From: Candidatus Aramenus sp. CH1
GTDB lineage: Archaea > Thermoproteota > Thermoprotei_A > Sulfolobales > Sulfolobaceae
NCBI GenBank assembly: GCA_022678445.1
Contig: JALBWU010000010.1
Coordinates: forward strand, 1-64,000
Reading direction: 5' to 3'
DNA length: 64,000 nucleotides
Shown: piece by piece, positions 34,014 to 42,191 of the stretch
Layout of the letters: each line of letters opens with the position of its first letter
Numbering within the stretch: position 1 is the stretch's first letter
Notes under the pieces: generated by a model
Database searches by the model: none
Told to the model about the DNA's origin: nothing
The model's input: only the letters and a program-made list of their open reading frames with translations
Program-made: the position numbers and the translations under genes

Positions 34014-34463
34014 ATGGCCATAGAAATAGGCCAAGAGGCTCCGGACTTCGAGGCGGAGAGCAACCAAGGCACACTCAAACTCTCTTCACTAAGGGGAAAG
34101 AAAGTAGTCTTGTACTTCTACCCCAAGTCCTTTACGCCCGGTTGCACTAGGGAACTGCAGAGATTTACGGAGCTCTACAGCGAGTTCAAGCAGAACAACG
34201 CTGAAGTAATAGGGGTGAGCGTCGACTCGGTGTCGACGCAGAAGAGGTTCGCCGAGAAGTACAACTCCCCCTTCCCCCTGGTGTCGGACAAGGAAAAGAA
34301 AGTTGCAACCATCTACGGGGTGTTAAACGAGAAGGGCACAAGCGCCCAGAGGGTCACCTTCGTAATAGACGAGAACGGGAAAGTCGTAGCAGTGCTGAGG
34401 AACTTGAAGAAGGCGGAGGAGCACGCGGACAGGGCGCTAGAGATAATCAAGGGAAAGGCCTAA
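34014..34463 (+). CDS. bcp: Peroxiredoxin, Bcp/PrxQ type
   Basis: A 149-residue thioredoxin-fold peroxidase. The peroxidatic Cys is in FTPGCTRELQRF (about residue 44); the PrxQ resolving Cys five residues on is missing (Leu-Gln instead), and there is no other Cys, so it works as a 1-Cys enzyme needing an external thiol partner. It reduces H2O2 and alkyl hydroperoxides in the cytoplasm, important for an aerobic thermoacidophile. Its stop overlaps that of the convergent Nnr gene by 4 nt. Confidence 0.93.
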   Translation: MAIEIGQEAPDFEAESNQGTLKLSSLRGKKVVLYFYPKSFTPGCTRELQRFTELYSEFKQNNAEVIGVSVDSVSTQKRFAEKYNSPFPLVSDKEKKVATIYGVLNEKGTSAQRVTFVIDENGKVVAVLRNLKKAEEHADRALEIIKGKA

Positions 34464-36099: not shown

Positions 36100-36289
36100 A
36101 TGGCTGAAAGCTCCATATAGGAAAGGTTAATTAAGGTAAATCATCACTCTAATTTCATATATAAGACTAGGAATTTTAAAACGAACAATGAATAAATTAA
36201 ACAATATTGATTAATTGACAGTTGTGTTATAATGAACTATTGATCAAAGTTTATAAACTACCATATTTACTTATTTAAAGGGATCAAAT
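36100..36289. other. AT-rich promoter region of the rubrerythrin-like gene
   Basis: No gene. AGTTTATAAAC near 36249-36259 is the probable TATA box, about 35 nt before the ATG. An imperfect inverted pair TTGATC/GGATCAA flanks the promoter (36241-36246 and 36281-36287) and could be an operator. Confidence 0.4.
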
Positions 36290-36838
36290 ATGGCCCTCGG
36301 AAAGGAAACCGAAATGGGATTAAAGGAACTATTTAAGGCAAACGCAGAGGACTACATGTTGTTAACCCTTCTCGCCAATAAGCTGGAGAGAATGGGAAAG
36401 GTAGAGGAGGCCAAGATACTTAAGGAGAAGGCACTCGTGGAGTTAGCCCACGCCTCCGGGATTTTCGAGAAGCTACTGACCAACTACGACGTAAGTGGGG
36501 CGCTAGAGCAGTTTGCAAAGGAGGAGGGTGAGGAGCACGTGAGCGAGTACAACAACGTTGCCATGAAGGCTAAGGCTGAGGGACACGCAGACGTGGAAGC
36601 CATGCTATGCGCCTACGCCGAACAGGAGAAGGGCATCGCTGAGGCTACCGCCAAGGTCGTGGCAATGCTCAAGAGCTTCGCCAAGGAGGAGGGTGAGGAG
36701 CACGTGAGCGAGTACAACAACGTTGCCATGAAGGCTAAGGCTGAGGGACACGCAGACATAGAGGCTATGCTGTGTGCGTACGCTGAGCAAGAAAAGGGAA
36801 TAGCTGAGGCAGTGAGCAAAGCCGCCAAGGCACTTTAA
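36290..36838 (+). CDS. Rubrerythrin/ferritin-like protein with duplicated second helix pair
   Basis: A 182-residue helical protein. Helices A and B keep ferritin-like ligands: Glu20 and E51-x-x-H54. The second helix pair occurs twice in tandem (residues about 76-119 and 131-174), each with E-x-x-E plus Tyr in helix C and EQEKGIAEA in helix D, where rubrerythrins have E-x-x-H. The ligand His is Ile116 and Ile171. No rubredoxin domain follows, as in sulerythrin. A 75-bp stretch is identical between the copies (36518-36592 and 36683-36757), so the duplication is recent or kept equal by gene conversion. Peroxide handling or metal storage is the family expectation; the altered site makes it uncertain. 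Confidence 0.75.
   Translation: MALGKETEMGLKELFKANAEDYMLLTLLANKLERMGKVEEAKILKEKALVELAHASGIFEKLLTNYDVSGALEQFAKEEGEEHVSEYNNVAMKAKAEGHADVEAMLCAYAEQEKGIAEATAKVVAMLKSFAKEEGEEHVSEYNNVAMKAKAEGHADIEAMLCAYAEQEKGIAEAVSKAAKAL
36518..36757 (+). repeat. Exact 75-bp tandem duplication core inside the rubrerythrin-like gene
   Basis: 36518-36592 and 36683-36757 are identical, offset 165 bp (55 codons). Outside this core the copies diverge at synonymous sites and a few amino acids (for example V/I at residues 102 and 157). Confidence 0.9.
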
Positions 36839-36961: not shown

Positions 36962-38452
36962 ATGATGGAGCAAATAGTTGGATACGTAATAGGCACTTCC
37001 ACTACCCAACAAGCGACAATGCTGGCAAAGCAGGCAGTGAGACTAGGGAGGTACGTAACCCTGGAGTACGACGGGCAAAAAGTGTTGGGGCTCATAACCT
37101 CAGTGACTAGGGGGAGCCCTCTCATCAACGACAGCTTAGACGACGTGGAGATCTTGGACGACATCATATACGTCCAGAAGGTACCTAGGTTCATAAGGGC
37201 TGAAATAAAGTTGCTTTACGACCTTACCTCTAAGTCTCTCCCCCAAGTGCCCCCTCCTCCCGGGACTCAGGTTAGATTTTCCCAGGAGAACGAGCTCCAG
37301 TCGCTCTTCTCCGAGGGCGAAATCGAGATAGGCAAGCTAATAGGCACAAATGTTGCTGTTAAGATCAAGGTAAATTCCCTAGCAAGGCACTTAGCCATCC
37401 TGGCGGCCACTGGGAGCGGAAAGTCAAACACAGTGGCGGTGCTGACTCAGAGGATTTCAGAAATTGGAGGATCAGTATTAATATTTGACTATCACGGCGA
37501 GTATTACAATAGCGATATAAAGAATTTAAATCCTATTGAACCAAAATTAAATCCTAGATATCTATCTCCCAGAGAATTTGCAACACTTTTAGAAATACCT
37601 AGGAATGCAACTATACAATATAGGATTTTAAGGAAGGCATTCACGGAGTACTTGAAGGACCTGGAGAACAGCTTTAACTCTGGGCAAGTTGACCTATCTA
37701 AGCTAAACGAGACCTTTGTTGCTGACCTAGAGAGCAGGATAGAGAAGTCCTTGGAAGAGTCCTCCAGGAAGAACAAGGACTCGGCAGAGGAGGTGGAGAA
37801 CAAACTAGAAGAGTTCTTTGAAAGGTACTCCAACGTCATAGACTTGACTGCCCCGGACATAACGTCTAGGATAAGGAGCCGCAGCGTAAACGTGGTGGAC
37901 ATAAGCCACCTCGACGAGGACTCGATGGACGCCATAGTCTCCCACTACTTGAGGAGAGTACTTGACAGCAGGAAGAGCTACAAGAGGACTGGAAACGGAC
38001 TTAGATTCCCCGTCATACTGGTCATAGAGGAAGCTCACGTGTTTATCTCCAAGACGGAGAACACCTTGACGAAGGCTTGGGCTGGGAAGATAGCCAGGGA
38101 GGGGAGAAAGTTCGGCGTCAGCATGGTCATCGTGAGCCAAAGACCAAAGGGATTAGACGACACGATCTTGAGTCAGATGACTAACAAGATAATCCTGAAG
38201 ATAGTTGAGCCTAACGACAAGAAGTACGTCCTTGAGTCCAGCGACAACTTGAGCGAGGACCTCGTGAGTCAGCTCTCCTCCCTCGACGTAGGGGAGGCTA
38301 TAGTCATAGGCAATCTCGTGAGGATACCCTCGTTCGTGAAAATCGATAAGTTCGAGGGAAAGCTAGGAGGCTCTGATCCAGACATGATTGGGGAGTGGAG
38401 GAAAGAGGAAGAGGAGAACAACGTCCGCTCCTCTGTGGCAGACTTTGGGTGA
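36962..38452 (+). CDS. herA: HerA bipolar DNA helicase/translocase
   Basis: A 496-residue hexameric FtsK-HerA-type ATPase. An N-terminal beta-barrel HAS domain (about 1-140) precedes Walker A ATGSGKSN (about 150-156), Walker B VILVIEEAHVF (about 345-355), the arginine-finger region KIAREGRKFGVSMVIVSQRPKGL and a C-terminal brace. HerA works with NurA, Mre11 and Rad50 to resect double-strand breaks to 3' overhangs for RadA. It starts the operon; mre11 follows after 5 nt. Codons between about 37465 and 37635 are markedly AT-rich compared with the rest of the gene. Confidence 0.96.
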   Translation: MMEQIVGYVIGTSTTQQATMLAKQAVRLGRYVTLEYDGQKVLGLITSVTRGSPLINDSLDDVEILDDIIYVQKVPRFIRAEIKLLYDLTSKSLPQVPPPPGTQVRFSQENELQSLFSEGEIEIGKLIGTNVAVKIKVNSLARHLAILAATGSGKSNTVAVLTQRISEIGGSVLIFDYHGEYYNSDIKNLNPIEPKLNPRYLSPREFATLLEIPRNATIQYRILRKAFTEYLKDLENSFNSGQVDLSKLNETFVADLESRIEKSLEESSRKNKDSAEEVENKLEEFFERYSNVIDLTAPDITSRIRSRSVNVVDISHLDEDSMDAIVSHYLRRVLDSRKSYKRTGNGLRFPVILVIEEAHVFISKTENTLTKAWAGKIAREGRKFGVSMVIVSQRPKGLDDTILSQMTNKIILKIVEPNDKKYVLESSDNLSEDLVSQLSSLDVGEAIVIGNLVRIPSFVKIDKFEGKLGGSDPDMIGEWRKEEEENNVRSSVADFG

Positions 38453-38457
38453 TTGAC

Positions 38458-39597
38458 GTGCAGTTCCTCCACATCTCAGATACCCACTTGGGTTCTAGGA
38501 GGTATAACTTGGAGTCCAGAGAAAAGGACGTCTACGATACGTTCAACAACTTGATCGAAATCGCCATCAAGGAACACGTCAAGGCAGTAGTGCACACAGG
38601 GGACTTGTTCGACGTCTACAATCCTCCCACCAGCGCGTTGAAGGTGTGCGTGGAGGGGCTGAAGAAGCTGAAGGACAAGGGGATACCCTTCATCTCTATA
38701 CCCGGGGACCACGACACGCCAAAGAAGAGGGGAGAGATCTACACCCACAGGCTCTTGAGCGAGACCCTCGAGCTCCTCCGCTTCCTAGACGGGGAGAACA
38801 ACAAGTTCTACGAGGCCACAGACGGCAACTTGAGGGTTAGATTCTACGGGGTGAGGCACATACCCACGGTCGCGAGGCAGAGGCTCCTCGAGATCCTCTC
38901 ATCCCTCAAGCCCGAGGGGGACAGGAACGTGCTAATGCTCCACCAAGGGCTTAGGAGTAAGCTACCCTACGACGGGGCGTGGCAGTTAGAGGAGGGAAAC
39001 CTACCCAAGGGCTTCAACTACTACGCCCTAGGCCACTTCCACACTAGGTTTAAGGAGAGGTTGCCGTTTGGCACCTTGGCGATAGCCGGGTCTCCAGAGA
39101 TCATAAGGGAGGAGGAAATAGAGGGCTACCAGAAATACGGGAAGGGAGGCTACCTTGTAGACATGTCGAAGGACGAAGCTACGACCCAGGACGTAAACGT
39201 GAAGATAAGGCCCCAGGAGGTGGTGACAATCAACACTAACACCCTTGATTTGGACGTCCAGAACTTAATCAGGAAGTACCAAGGGTACCAGAGGTTCAGG
39301 CCAATCCTCCACATTGTCCTAGAGGGAGAGAGGGTGGGTACTAGAGCCCTTTACGAGAAGCTTTCCGCGCTGAACAGAGTGGCGGAGTTCTACAGGATAT
39401 ACAAGGACAACACCAAGGACAGCAACGAGAAGAAGATCGAGGTTCCAACCGGCTCCACAGTAAACCAGGTCATATCTAGTTTCTTGAAGTCAAGGGGCTA
39501 CACCGAGGAGGAGGTCAGCCAAATCATAGAGTTGATAAACAACTACGACTCCGACTCGGTAGGCGACATCCTGGAAAGGATAGGCGGTCTAAAGTGA
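38458..39597 (+). CDS. mre11: Mre11 double-strand-break repair nuclease
   Basis: A 379-residue calcineurin-like nuclease: LHISDTHLGSRRY (motif I), HTGDLFDVYNPP (II), SIPGDHDTPKKRG (III; Asp replaces the usual Asn) and ALGHFHTRF (V), then a capping domain and Rad50-binding tail. The start is GTG at 38458, right before QFLHISDTH; an in-frame ATG at 38395 would add 21 residues that overlap herA and do not look conserved. With Rad50 it binds and trims DNA ends. Its stop overlaps the rad50 GTG by 4 nt. Confidence 0.95.
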   Translation: MQFLHISDTHLGSRRYNLESREKDVYDTFNNLIEIAIKEHVKAVVHTGDLFDVYNPPTSALKVCVEGLKKLKDKGIPFISIPGDHDTPKKRGEIYTHRLLSETLELLRFLDGENNKFYEATDGNLRVRFYGVRHIPTVARQRLLEILSSLKPEGDRNVLMLHQGLRSKLPYDGAWQLEEGNLPKGFNYYALGHFHTRFKERLPFGTLAIAGSPEIIREEEIEGYQKYGKGGYLVDMSKDEATTQDVNVKIRPQEVVTINTNTLDLDVQNLIRKYQGYQRFRPILHIVLEGERVGTRALYEKLSALNRVAEFYRIYKDNTKDSNEKKIEVPTGSTVNQVISSFLKSRGYTEEEVSQIIELINNYDSDSVGDILERIGGLK

Positions 39598-42191
39598 GGA
39601 TAGACAGGATAGACCTTAAGAACTTCCTGAGCCACAGCGAAAGTTCGGTCAATTTCAAGGGGAGAATAAACGTCCTAATTGGCCACAACGGGGCGGGAAA
39701 GAGCTCCATAATCGACGGCATCGTTTTCGCCCTCTTCAGGGAGAGCAGTAGGGGCAACGCCAACAAGAACCTAGTGAGGATGGGCAATAGGTCGGCTTCG
39801 GTCAGGCTGACCCTCGCCAACGGTAACCAGATCATTATAGAGAGGCACTTGCCAGACTCCGGTAGCGACCTACTTATAGTCGGTTCCGTGCCTAGGGCCA
39901 GGGGAGCGGAAAAGGTAACCGAGGAGGTGCAGAAGATCATTAACATAGACGAGGAGGTGCTGCTCTCCACCCTGATAGTGAGACAAGGGGAGATAGAGTC
40001 CATATTTGAGGACTTAACGAACGTGCTGAAGAAGGTAATGAAGATTGAAAACTTGGAGAAGTTGACCGAGGCCTCTGGCCCAATATATTTCAAGATGAAG
40101 GAAATCCAGGGTAAGTTGGAGCAAATCCAAACCTTTGAGAAGGAATACACTGACACAAGCAGGAAACTAGATGATTTAATTAGAGAAAAGAGCAAAATTG
40201 AAGAAGAACTAGAAGAACTTAGAAAATCTGAAGAGACCTTAAACGGGCAACTACAGGAGGCTCAAAGGTCGTTAGATGACGCCCAGAGGAAAAGGGACGA
40301 GTACTTACTCTTAGTCAGCAGGAGGAACCAGCTGACAAGGGACAAGAAGGAGGTTGAGGATCGTCTCTCACAGCTAGCGGGGGCAGAAGAGAAAAAGAGC
40401 GCGATAGAGGAGAGGATAAGGGAACTGGAGAAATACGAGGAAGCAAGGGGCCTTTTAGACCAGTTAAGGGAAGTAGAAAAGGACATCGTTAGAATAGGGC
40501 AGAGCCTAGAGAAGGCCATGAAGGAGAGGGACGCCATTAAGGACAAGCTAAGGAGGAAGGAGGAACTCTACCCGGACTACTTAAGCTACGTTGCCAACAA
40601 AGAGGAACTTGAGTCCATTGAGGAAAAGGAGAGGGAATACAACGGCCTCAAAGCCACATACAAGAACATCCAAGAGGAGATCTCGAGGATAGACAAGGCC
40701 TTGAGTTCGCTCAAGGTGATCGACACAAGCAAAATAGAGGACGAGATACGTAAGGTTGAGGACGAGATAAGCGAGCTAAACAGCAGGAAGGGGAAGCTCA
40801 CGGCACAGCTGGACGAAGCAAAAAAGATCTTGAGTGGCTTAGAGCAGGTAAAGGGGGGACAGTGCCCGGTCTGTAGGAGGCAACTGGACGAGTCGCACAG
40901 GTTAAGCCTAATCCAGGAGGCAAAGAGCGTTATTAAGTCGTCTAAAGAAGAGTTGGACAACGTGTCCAGGAGGCTAAGCGAACTTGCCAAGAGAAAGGAA
41001 GACTTGAGGAGACAGCTCAGTAACGCCAACCAAAACAACTCCAGGTACAACACGTTAGCGGAGAAAAAGACAGAGCTAGAAAAGCAACTCGCAGATGTGC
41101 AATCGAGGCTAGAGGAGCTAAAAAAGGTACACGAAGAGTACGTTAAGCTCAAGGACATCCTAAACAAACTGGAGCCTGCATATAAGGAATATCTAACCTT
41201 AAGCAAAGTTAACGAAGAGGATCTTAAGGAAAAGGAAGAAGAGATATGCAAGTTAAACCGGCAGATGGAGGAGAAACAGACCAAGAAAAATGAGATAATG
41301 AACAAACTGACTGAAATGGACCTGGAGTCCATTGAGGAGAAGTTGAGGGAACTTGAGGAATTGAAGAAGAGGCTAAACGACGTGCTACAGAAGTTGGGCG
41401 AGAGGTCATCGCTCGAGATGAGACTAAACGACATACAAAAGAGCCTAGAGGAGATTGGGAAGAAGATCGCCGAGTTAAACTTCTCGGAGGAAGAGTACCA
41501 AGAGGCTAAGAGAAAGGTGGAAGAGCTTCGCAATAAGTTACTGGATACCTCTAACAAGATAGCTGAGTACAATGGCAGGCTTAACCAAATAAGGAAGGAC
41601 ATAGAGGAGAAGGAGAAGAGGCTAAAGGAGCTAGAGGCTTTGATAGACCAGAAACCCAGGCTAGAGAAGGCGTTAAAGAAGCTCGCCAAGCTGAGGGAAG
41701 ACCTAGGCGAGAAGGGGCTTCAAAGTTACATCATCTCCGCAGTAAAGAGCAAGATAGAGAACAACTTGAACGAGATAACCTCAATGTTTAACCTGGCGTT
41801 CACAAGGGTGTCCTTGGAATTCAATACCTCGACCAGGGGGCAAAAGATCAAGGCTAGCTTGTCCGCTTACGACAATTACGGTAGGGAGTACGCCGTGGAC
41901 ATGTTGAGCGGAGGAGAGAAGATATCCATTGCCCTAGCTCTAAGGCTGGCAATTGCCAAGTCCCTCATGGACTCCCTGGGGTTCATAATCCTAGACGAGC
42001 CCACAGTCCACCTAGACGAGGAGAGGAGGAAGGAGCTCATGAACGTCATTAGGGGTGCCCTAGACGTAGTTCCTCAAATAATAGTAGTCACACACGACGA
42101 CGAGATCCTCGAGATAGGCGACTACATCATTAGGGTAGAGAAAAGGGGTTCAGAGAGCAAGGTAACCGAGGAGGTGCCGGGAAACGATTGA
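39594..42191 (+). CDS. rad50: Rad50 ATPase with zinc hook
   Basis: An 865-residue ABC/SMC-like ATPase. Walker A is GHNGAGKSS (about 32-40); a long coiled coil (about 170-700) is centred on the zinc hook CPVC at about 424-427; the signature is MLSGGEKISIALALRLA and Walker B is FIILDEPTVHLDEE. It dimerises through the hook and clamps DNA ends for Mre11. It starts at GTG overlapping mre11, and its TGA stop overlaps the proposed ATT start of nurA. The coiled coil produces long Ser/Leu-rich antisense frames that are not genes. Confidence 0.96.
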   Translation: MRIDRIDLKNFLSHSESSVNFKGRINVLIGHNGAGKSSIIDGIVFALFRESSRGNANKNLVRMGNRSASVRLTLANGNQIIIERHLPDSGSDLLIVGSVPRARGAEKVTEEVQKIINIDEEVLLSTLIVRQGEIESIFEDLTNVLKKVMKIENLEKLTEASGPIYFKMKEIQGKLEQIQTFEKEYTDTSRKLDDLIREKSKIEEELEELRKSEETLNGQLQEAQRSLDDAQRKRDEYLLLVSRRNQLTRDKKEVEDRLSQLAGAEEKKSAIEERIRELEKYEEARGLLDQLREVEKDIVRIGQSLEKAMKERDAIKDKLRRKEELYPDYLSYVANKEELESIEEKEREYNGLKATYKNIQEEISRIDKALSSLKVIDTSKIEDEIRKVEDEISELNSRKGKLTAQLDEAKKILSGLEQVKGGQCPVCRRQLDESHRLSLIQEAKSVIKSSKEELDNVSRRLSELAKRKEDLRRQLSNANQNNSRYNTLAEKKTELEKQLADVQSRLEELKKVHEEYVKLKDILNKLEPAYKEYLTLSKVNEEDLKEKEEEICKLNRQMEEKQTKKNEIMNKLTEMDLESIEEKLRELEELKKRLNDVLQKLGERSSLEMRLNDIQKSLEEIGKKIAELNFSEEEYQEAKRKVEELRNKLLDTSNKIAEYNGRLNQIRKDIEEKEKRLKELEALIDQKPRLEKALKKLAKLREDLGEKGLQSYIISAVKSKIENNLNEITSMFNLAFTRVSLEFNTSTRGQKIKASLSAYDNYGREYAVDMLSGGEKISIALALRLAIAKSLMDSLGFIILDEPTVHLDEERRKELMNVIRGALDVVPQIIVVTHDDEILEIGDYIIRVEKRGSESKVTEEVPGND

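What the first reader, a model, noticed from the sequence alone, without database searches (positions are those of the whole stretch)
36290..36838. Rubrerythrin-like protein with a duplicated helix pair and His-to-Ile change in both copies
The protein has helices A-B plus two tandem copies of C-D. Each C helix keeps E-x-x-E and Tyr as in sulerythrin, but each D helix has E-K-G-I where sulerythrin has E-K-S-H. One half of the diiron site therefore lacks its His ligand, twice. The 75-bp identical cores show recent duplication or ongoing conversion. Such a three-pair protein could form alternating or domain-swapped ferritin bundles, and the altered site may change metal or reaction.
Basis: partly seen in the sequence, partly recalled or inferred. 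Interest (0 to 1): 0.68.

Follow-up and report, generated by a model that had tools for sequence, protein, structure and literature searches.

The report
Iron-protein hairpins repeated in tandem
Heat- and acid-loving archaea of one family carry, usually beside their DNA-break-repair genes, a ferritin-like (metal-binding) protein built from a two-helix module that is repeated one to four times, is often identical at the DNA level within a genome, and has its metal-binding residues rearranged, so the number of possible metal sites per protein may be adjustable.

Summary
Confirmed and extended. The 182-aa ORF at 36290-36838 is real: helices A-B plus two C-D hairpins, with a 75-bp identical core. 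It is not an assembly artefact: all 31 Sulfolobaceae species held have the family, upstream of herA-mre11-rad50-nurA in 28 of 31 loci. Copy number varies from AB(CD)1 to AB(CD)4. Six genera instead carry two genes, AB-AB' and a separate (CD)1-3. In many genomes CD copies are homogenised at DNA level (100% identical in six Metallosphaera), while orthologues differ synonymously.

Sulerythrin's His129 is Ile in all 65 CD repeats. But the helix-A Glu20 is also lost (Asn), 'ExxE' is not conserved, and every repeat has an invariant helix-C His (ExxxH) and helix-D Cys. The genome has a normal sulerythrin elsewhere.

AlphaFold2 of (CD)2 (pLDDT 89) joins D1 and C2 in one 52-residue helix. I infer a rod of hairpins pairing with other chains, generalising sulerythrin's domain-swapped dimer. 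Function (metal/peroxide handling) is inferred; the S. solfataricus orthologue SSO2253 was detected only in nickel-treated cells (PMC1995220). New variant of a known kind.

The parts
36290..36838 (+). whole gene: ferritin-like AB(CD)2 protein, 182 aa
   Evidence: orthologues in all 31 Sulfolobaceae species held
36302..36484 (+). A-B hairpin (residues 5-65); N18 at sulerythrin Glu20, E51 and H54 at Glu53 and His56
   Evidence: helices; alignment; N18, E51, H54 invariant in 30 of 30
36503..36667 (+). first C-D repeat unit (165 nt): E79, E82, H83, Y87 in helix C; C107, E113, I116 in helix D
36668..36832 (+). second C-D repeat unit (165 nt): E134, E137, H138, Y142 in helix C; C162, E168, I171 in helix D
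36518..36592 (+). 75-bp core identical to 36683-36757
   Evidence: six concerted sites against the sister species, no position-specific site
36683..36757 (+). 75-bp core, second copy
36587..36742 (+). predicted continuous helix D1-C2 (residues 100-151)
   Evidence: AlphaFold2 of the full protein (low confidence) and of the (CD)2 part (mean pLDDT 89)
36250..36257 (+). TATA-like TTTATAAA 33 nt upstream of the ATG
   Evidence: read from the sequence; not tested
36962..42191 (+). herA (36962-38452), mre11 (38395-39597 as the longest reading), rad50 (39594-42191): start of the conserved repair operon downstream
   Evidence: Pfam; adjacency in 28 of 31 loci
34014..34463 (+). peroxiredoxin (AhpC/TSA family) in the conserved neighbourhood
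   Evidence: Pfam; synteny

Best explanation
This is a Sulfolobaceae ferritin-like protein, a distant rubrerythrin relative, whose functional module is the C-D helical hairpin. The locus carries one A-B hairpin and 1-4 head-to-tail C-D hairpins, or, in six genera, an AB-AB' gene next to a (CD)1-3 gene. Successive C-D hairpins are joined by continuous helices, so the chain is an extended rod of hairpins rather than a closed bundle. Rods associate, probably antiparallel as in the domain-swapped sulerythrin dimer, so that each hairpin is completed into a four-helix bundle by a hairpin of another chain. An AB(CD)n dimer would then contain n+1 bundles: two AB:CD ends and CD:CD bundles between. Each CD hairpin brings the equivalents of Glu92 and Glu126 plus an invariant helix-C His that may stand in for the lost His129; a CD:CD bundle would offer four Glu and up to two His. 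The likely job is binding iron or other transition metals, perhaps with peroxide consumption, in the metal/oxidative stress response. SHOWN: module architecture, copy-number variation, split genes, DNA-level homogenisation, residue conservation, synteny, remote homology to rubrerythrin. PREDICTED: helices and the continuous D1-C2 helix. INFERRED: rod pairing, metal binding, stress function.
For: Remote homology to rubrerythrin and sulerythrin over the full AB-CD length and hairpin-level fold matches to rubrerythrins. CD number 1-4 with AB fixed at 1 or 2, so CD hairpins cannot all pair with AB. (CD)2 model at pLDDT 89 with one 52-residue D1-C2 helix; no Pro in any linker, site Glu residues 21 residues (three heptads) apart in most fused forms and in the g3 split gene. 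Invariant Glu92/Glu126 equivalents, His and Cys in 65 of 65 repeats, E51/H54 in 30 of 30, so no repeat has decayed. CD-only genes always lie beside an AB-AB' gene, even where both have moved. SSO2253 and the peroxiredoxin Bcp3 of the same locus were found only in nickel-treated cells (PMC1995220).
Against: No metal has been measured. Glu20, His129 and conserved Glu95 of sulerythrin are missing, so the AB:CD site may be too poor to bind two metals. The full-length model is weak (pLDDT 67, pTM 0.37), folding alignments had 4-5 rows, no dimer was modelled, and Foldseek matches are above E 0.01 with large rmsd. The link to DNA repair is only gene order.
Confidence: 0.45

Rival explanations
1. It is a metal-free structural protein: a rubrerythrin descendant that lost its dimetal site and now works as a rod or scaffold. 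The conserved Glu, His, Tyr and Cys serve packing, salt bridges and disulphides.
For: Loss of Glu20 and His129 in all members, variable Glu95. A survey of acidophilic archaea describes a rubrerythrin group with a small domain lacking diiron motifs (PMC8773360), although whether it is this family was not shown. Extended helix in the model.
Against: Five former site positions (Glu53, His56, Glu92, Tyr100, Glu126 equivalents) stay invariant across all genera and all repeats, which is unusual for a lost site.
Confidence: 0.3
2. It is essentially a sulerythrin-type H2O2 reductase in which the AB:CD pair makes one working dimetal site per bundle and the extra CD copies are neutral by-products of unequal exchange.
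For: AB(CD)1 exists in g8, so one CD suffices there. Copy number changes often, and copies are homogenised by conversion. Neighbouring peroxiredoxin.
Against: The genome has a normal sulerythrin already. The site residues differ from sulerythrin. All extra copies keep every conserved residue, and two-copy forms persist in most genera.
Confidence: 0.2
3. The tandem copy is an assembly artefact.
For: Long near-identical repeats are a known assembly hazard.
Against: In the window the copies are only 81% identical over 156 nt, and independent genomes, many in one contig, show 2-4 copies at the same place. Exact copy numbers in genomes with fully identical copies remain open to error.
Confidence: 0.01

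Closest known systems
Sulerythrin (rubredoxin-less rubrerythrin, Sulfolobus tokodaii, PDB 1J30)
   Same: A-B and C-D hairpins; equivalents of Glu53, His56, Glu92, Tyr100 and Glu126; no rubredoxin domain; chain laid out for hairpin swapping.
   Different: Glu20 is Asn, His129 is Ile, Glu95 not conserved, extra invariant His and Cys; C-D hairpin repeated 1-4 times; different locus; about 26% identity in the profile alignment. A true sulerythrin coexists in 30 of 31 species.
SSO2253 / Saci_0054-Saci_0055 (uncharacterised Sulfolobus proteins at the herA locus)
   Same: Same locus and family as judged by position; ferritin-like fold already predicted for SSO2253, which was found only in nickel-treated cells (PMC1995220); Saci_0054 and Saci_0055 listed as mainly shared by Sulfolobus and Thermoplasmata (PMC1852104).
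   Different: Those are the split form. The hairpin repeat, the fused forms, the copy-number range and the homogenisation were not described in the papers I could search. Assignment of the tags to the CD and AB genes is by position and gap length, not by sequence.
Encapsulated ferritin (EncFtn)
   Same: A two-helix hairpin that must pair with another to form a dimetal site (general knowledge); the 65-aa (CD)1 gene of g11 is of that kind.
   Different: Different ligand pattern (Glu and His on the first helix, Glu on the second), tandem fusion; no EncFtn match found.

Membership tests
Rubrerythrin/sulerythrin family | Sequence homology to rubrerythrin over the ferritin-like domain | tested here: met
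   Profile against PDB sequences: 9onm 9.2e-6, 4di0 1e-5, sulerythrin 0.008, full length; hhalign score 34.6 against shuffled maximum 20.8. Single sequence is below curated cut-offs.
Rubrerythrin/sulerythrin family | Full ligand set Glu20, Glu53, His56, Glu92, Glu95, Glu126, His129 | tested here: not met
   Glu20 is Asn18, His129 is Ile116/Ile171, Glu95 not conserved in the family.
Rubrerythrin/sulerythrin family | One A-B and one C-D hairpin per chain | tested here: not met
   Only g8 has this; others have 2-4 C-D hairpins or split genes.
Rubrerythrin/sulerythrin family | Four-helix bundle completed by domain swapping | tested here: inconclusive
   Hairpins and an open chain predicted; no dimer modelled.
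Rubrerythrin/sulerythrin family | Bound dimetal centre and peroxide reactivity | not testable with these tools
   Needs purified protein.
Encapsulated ferritin | Sequence match to EncFtn | tested here: not met
   No EncFtn among PDB or NCBIfam matches of the AB-CD or CD sequences.
Encapsulated ferritin | Encapsulin gene or targeting peptide | not tested
   No encapsulin gene was looked for specifically; neighbours examined are repair and redox genes.

The most novel reading that the evidence does not exclude
A ferritin-like protein whose number of dimetal sites is set by how many DNA-homogenised hairpin repeats the gene carries: hairpins joined by continuous helices form rods, inner CD:CD bundles carry a symmetric four-Glu/two-His site with the His moved to the first helix, and gene conversion keeps all sites identical while unequal exchange changes their number between species.
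Probability: 0.3. Interest if true: 0.78.

Novelty: new variant of a known kind. Interest (0 to 1): 0.6.

Why it matters
The ferritin-like fold is thought to have arisen by doubling of a two-helix hairpin (general knowledge). Here close relatives exist side by side as a single CD hairpin gene, AB-AB' and CD-CD doublets, four-helix AB-CD, and six-, eight- and ten-helix chains, with copies still being exchanged at DNA level. That makes hairpin duplication and swapping, and the tolerance of a dimetal site to moved ligands, directly testable in culturable organisms. It also gives an old unknown gene beside the archaeal double-strand-break repair operon, whose S. solfataricus orthologue was seen only in nickel-treated cells, a concrete molecular hypothesis.

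Tried and rejected
No relatives in viral contigs, phages or plasmids. Outside Sulfolobaceae, searches of 398 phylum-level and 147 order-level genomes gave only three weak matches (E 1e-5 to 7e-4); one coincides with an ordinary rubrerythrin, the other two were not examined. Papers mention homologues in Thermoplasmata; I had no handle to those genomes, so this is untested. I first took the C-terminal half of the split AB gene for a decayed CD; profile comparison rejects that in favour of a duplicated AB. I expected (CD)2 to fold back into a closed bundle; the model does not. SSO2642 was considered as the orthologue, but it is reported as dissimilar to SSO2253. The order of fused and split forms could not be fixed: deep nodes of the herA-mre11-rad50-nurA tree have 31-60% support.

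Full report
WHAT IS THERE. The ORF 36290-36838 (+) encodes 182 residues. Two 165-nt direct repeats, 36503-36667 and 36668-36832, make up its C-terminal two thirds; 134 nt of them are 89% identical, with an exactly identical 75-bp core (36518-36592 and 36683-36757). AlphaFold2 gives helices 5-34, 38-65, 71-96, 100-151 and 155-181: A, B, C1, a joined D1-C2, and D2.

WHAT IT IS RELATED TO. The single sequence is below every curated threshold and its best solved-structure match is a rubrerythrin at E 0.14. A profile of seven AB-CD1 sequences matches rubrerythrins 9onm and 4di0 at about 1e-5 over the full length and sulerythrin at 0.008. A profile comparison with Sulfolobaceae sulerythrins scores 34.6, against a maximum of 20.8 for 60 column-shuffled controls. 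The CD profile aligns on its own to sulerythrin 92-140 in the expected register. The genome also has an ordinary sulerythrin at another locus (L054), as do 30 of 31 species of the family. This is therefore a second, distant rubrerythrin-like family.

THE FAMILY. All 31 Sulfolobaceae species held carry it; none of 29 genomes of other families of the order did in the first search, and wider profile searches found only three weak matches outside. Fused forms: AB(CD)1 in g8; AB(CD)2 in the window's genus, in g5 and in two Metallosphaera; AB(CD)3 in g6 and three Metallosphaera; AB(CD)4 in one Metallosphaera. Split forms (g2, g3, g4, g7, g9, g11): one gene of 135-147 aa with AB, and beside it a gene of CD hairpins only, with one (g11, 65 aa), two or three copies. 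The second half of the split AB gene is a duplicated AB (score 27.5, shuffled maximum 15.5) and not a CD (12.1, within the shuffled range). In g3 the two genes are divergent; in g2 both have moved together away from herA, next to a Rieske-type gene.

SYNTENY. In 28 of 31 loci the gene, or the CD gene of the pair, lies just upstream of herA. The order peroxiredoxin, NAD(P)HX epimerase/dehydratase, this gene, herA-mre11-rad50-nurA recurs in most genera. In the window 123 nt separate it from herA, with a T-rich stretch and an A+T-rich, TATA-like stretch between them, so it may be its own transcription unit.

THE SITE. Sulerythrin's metal ligands are Glu20, Glu53, His56, Glu92, Glu126 and His129, with Glu95 at the substrate (PMC9589262). 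Here they correspond to Asn18, Glu51, His54, Glu79/Glu134, Glu113/Glu168, Ile116/Ile171, and Glu82/Glu137. Asn18, Glu51 and His54 are invariant in 30 AB units. In 65 CD repeats the Glu92 and Glu126 positions are Glu, His129 is always Ile, the Glu95 position is E, Q or A, and a His one residue later (H83/H138) and a Cys in helix D (C107/C162) are always present. The repeat finder itself required H, Y, A, E, G, M, L, E and I at fixed places, so those counts are partly built in; the Glu92 position, the Cys and the variable Glu95 position were not required, and an 11-row alignment of representatives gives the same invariant columns. At 100 degrees per residue H83 lies 40 degrees from Glu79, between it and Tyr87, so it could be a ligand or a second-sphere residue (inference). 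The change is a re-arrangement rather than a simple loss.

HOMOGENISATION. In six Metallosphaera species all CD copies (2 to 4) are identical over 156 nt within the genome, while the species differ from each other by 5-21% of bases with many synonymous changes, e.g. only 29 of 51 shared-residue codons identical between two of them. g3 is 99-100% identical within genes. Older, partly diverged copies exist in g4 and g5 (75-87% protein identity). In the window compared with its sister species, the 75-bp core has six sites where both window copies share one base and both sister copies another, and none where copies differ by position; position-specific differences lie near the unit ends. This points to gene conversion or unequal exchange after the species split.

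HOW IT MAY WORK. The (CD)2 part alone gives mean pLDDT 89 with a single 52-residue helix through D1 and C2. No linker in the family contains Pro, and the two site Glu residues on that helix are 21 residues apart in most fused forms and in the g3 split gene, which is three heptads (22 in g6, 27 in the other split genes with two copies). Such a chain cannot close CD1 on CD2; each hairpin needs a partner from another chain, as in the swapped sulerythrin dimer. Because AB is fixed at one or two while CD varies from one to four, CD:CD pairing is expected. I therefore propose an antiparallel rod dimer with n+1 bundles. This step is inference; no complex was modelled. Function is inferred from neighbours and from SSO2253, which was found only in nickel-treated S. 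solfataricus together with Bcp3 and had been predicted ferritin-like (PMC1995220). SSO2253 fits the (CD)2 gene by its distance of 87 nt to herA; corresponding gaps here are 72 to 124 nt.

LIMITS.

Noticed in passing
L054:1501-3120 (G000:C2, from 46757): The genome's ordinary sulerythrin is followed directly by a gene for a two-cluster Fe-S, CCG-domain-like oxidoreductase of 394 aa, as reported for SSO2642 and a glpC-like gene in S. solfataricus; a possible electron donor.
   Followed up: no
L050:10458-10772 (-): In g2, where the AB-AB' and (CD)2 genes have left the herA locus, the next gene upstream on the same strand encodes a 104-aa Rieske-type protein (Pfam E 3.6e-8), a possible redox partner.
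   Followed up: partly
L051:9782-9979 (+): g11 has a 65-aa gene that is a single C-D hairpin, beside an AB-AB' gene.
   Followed up: partly
L044:8888-10084 and L047:9147-10337: In g3 the AB-AB' gene is inverted relative to the (CD)3 gene, so the two are divergently transcribed from a shared intergenic region of about 0.2 kb.
   Followed up: no
L041:10466-10741 (+): In g6 the AB(CD)3 gene is away from herA and followed by a 91-aa gene without Pfam match.
   Followed up: no
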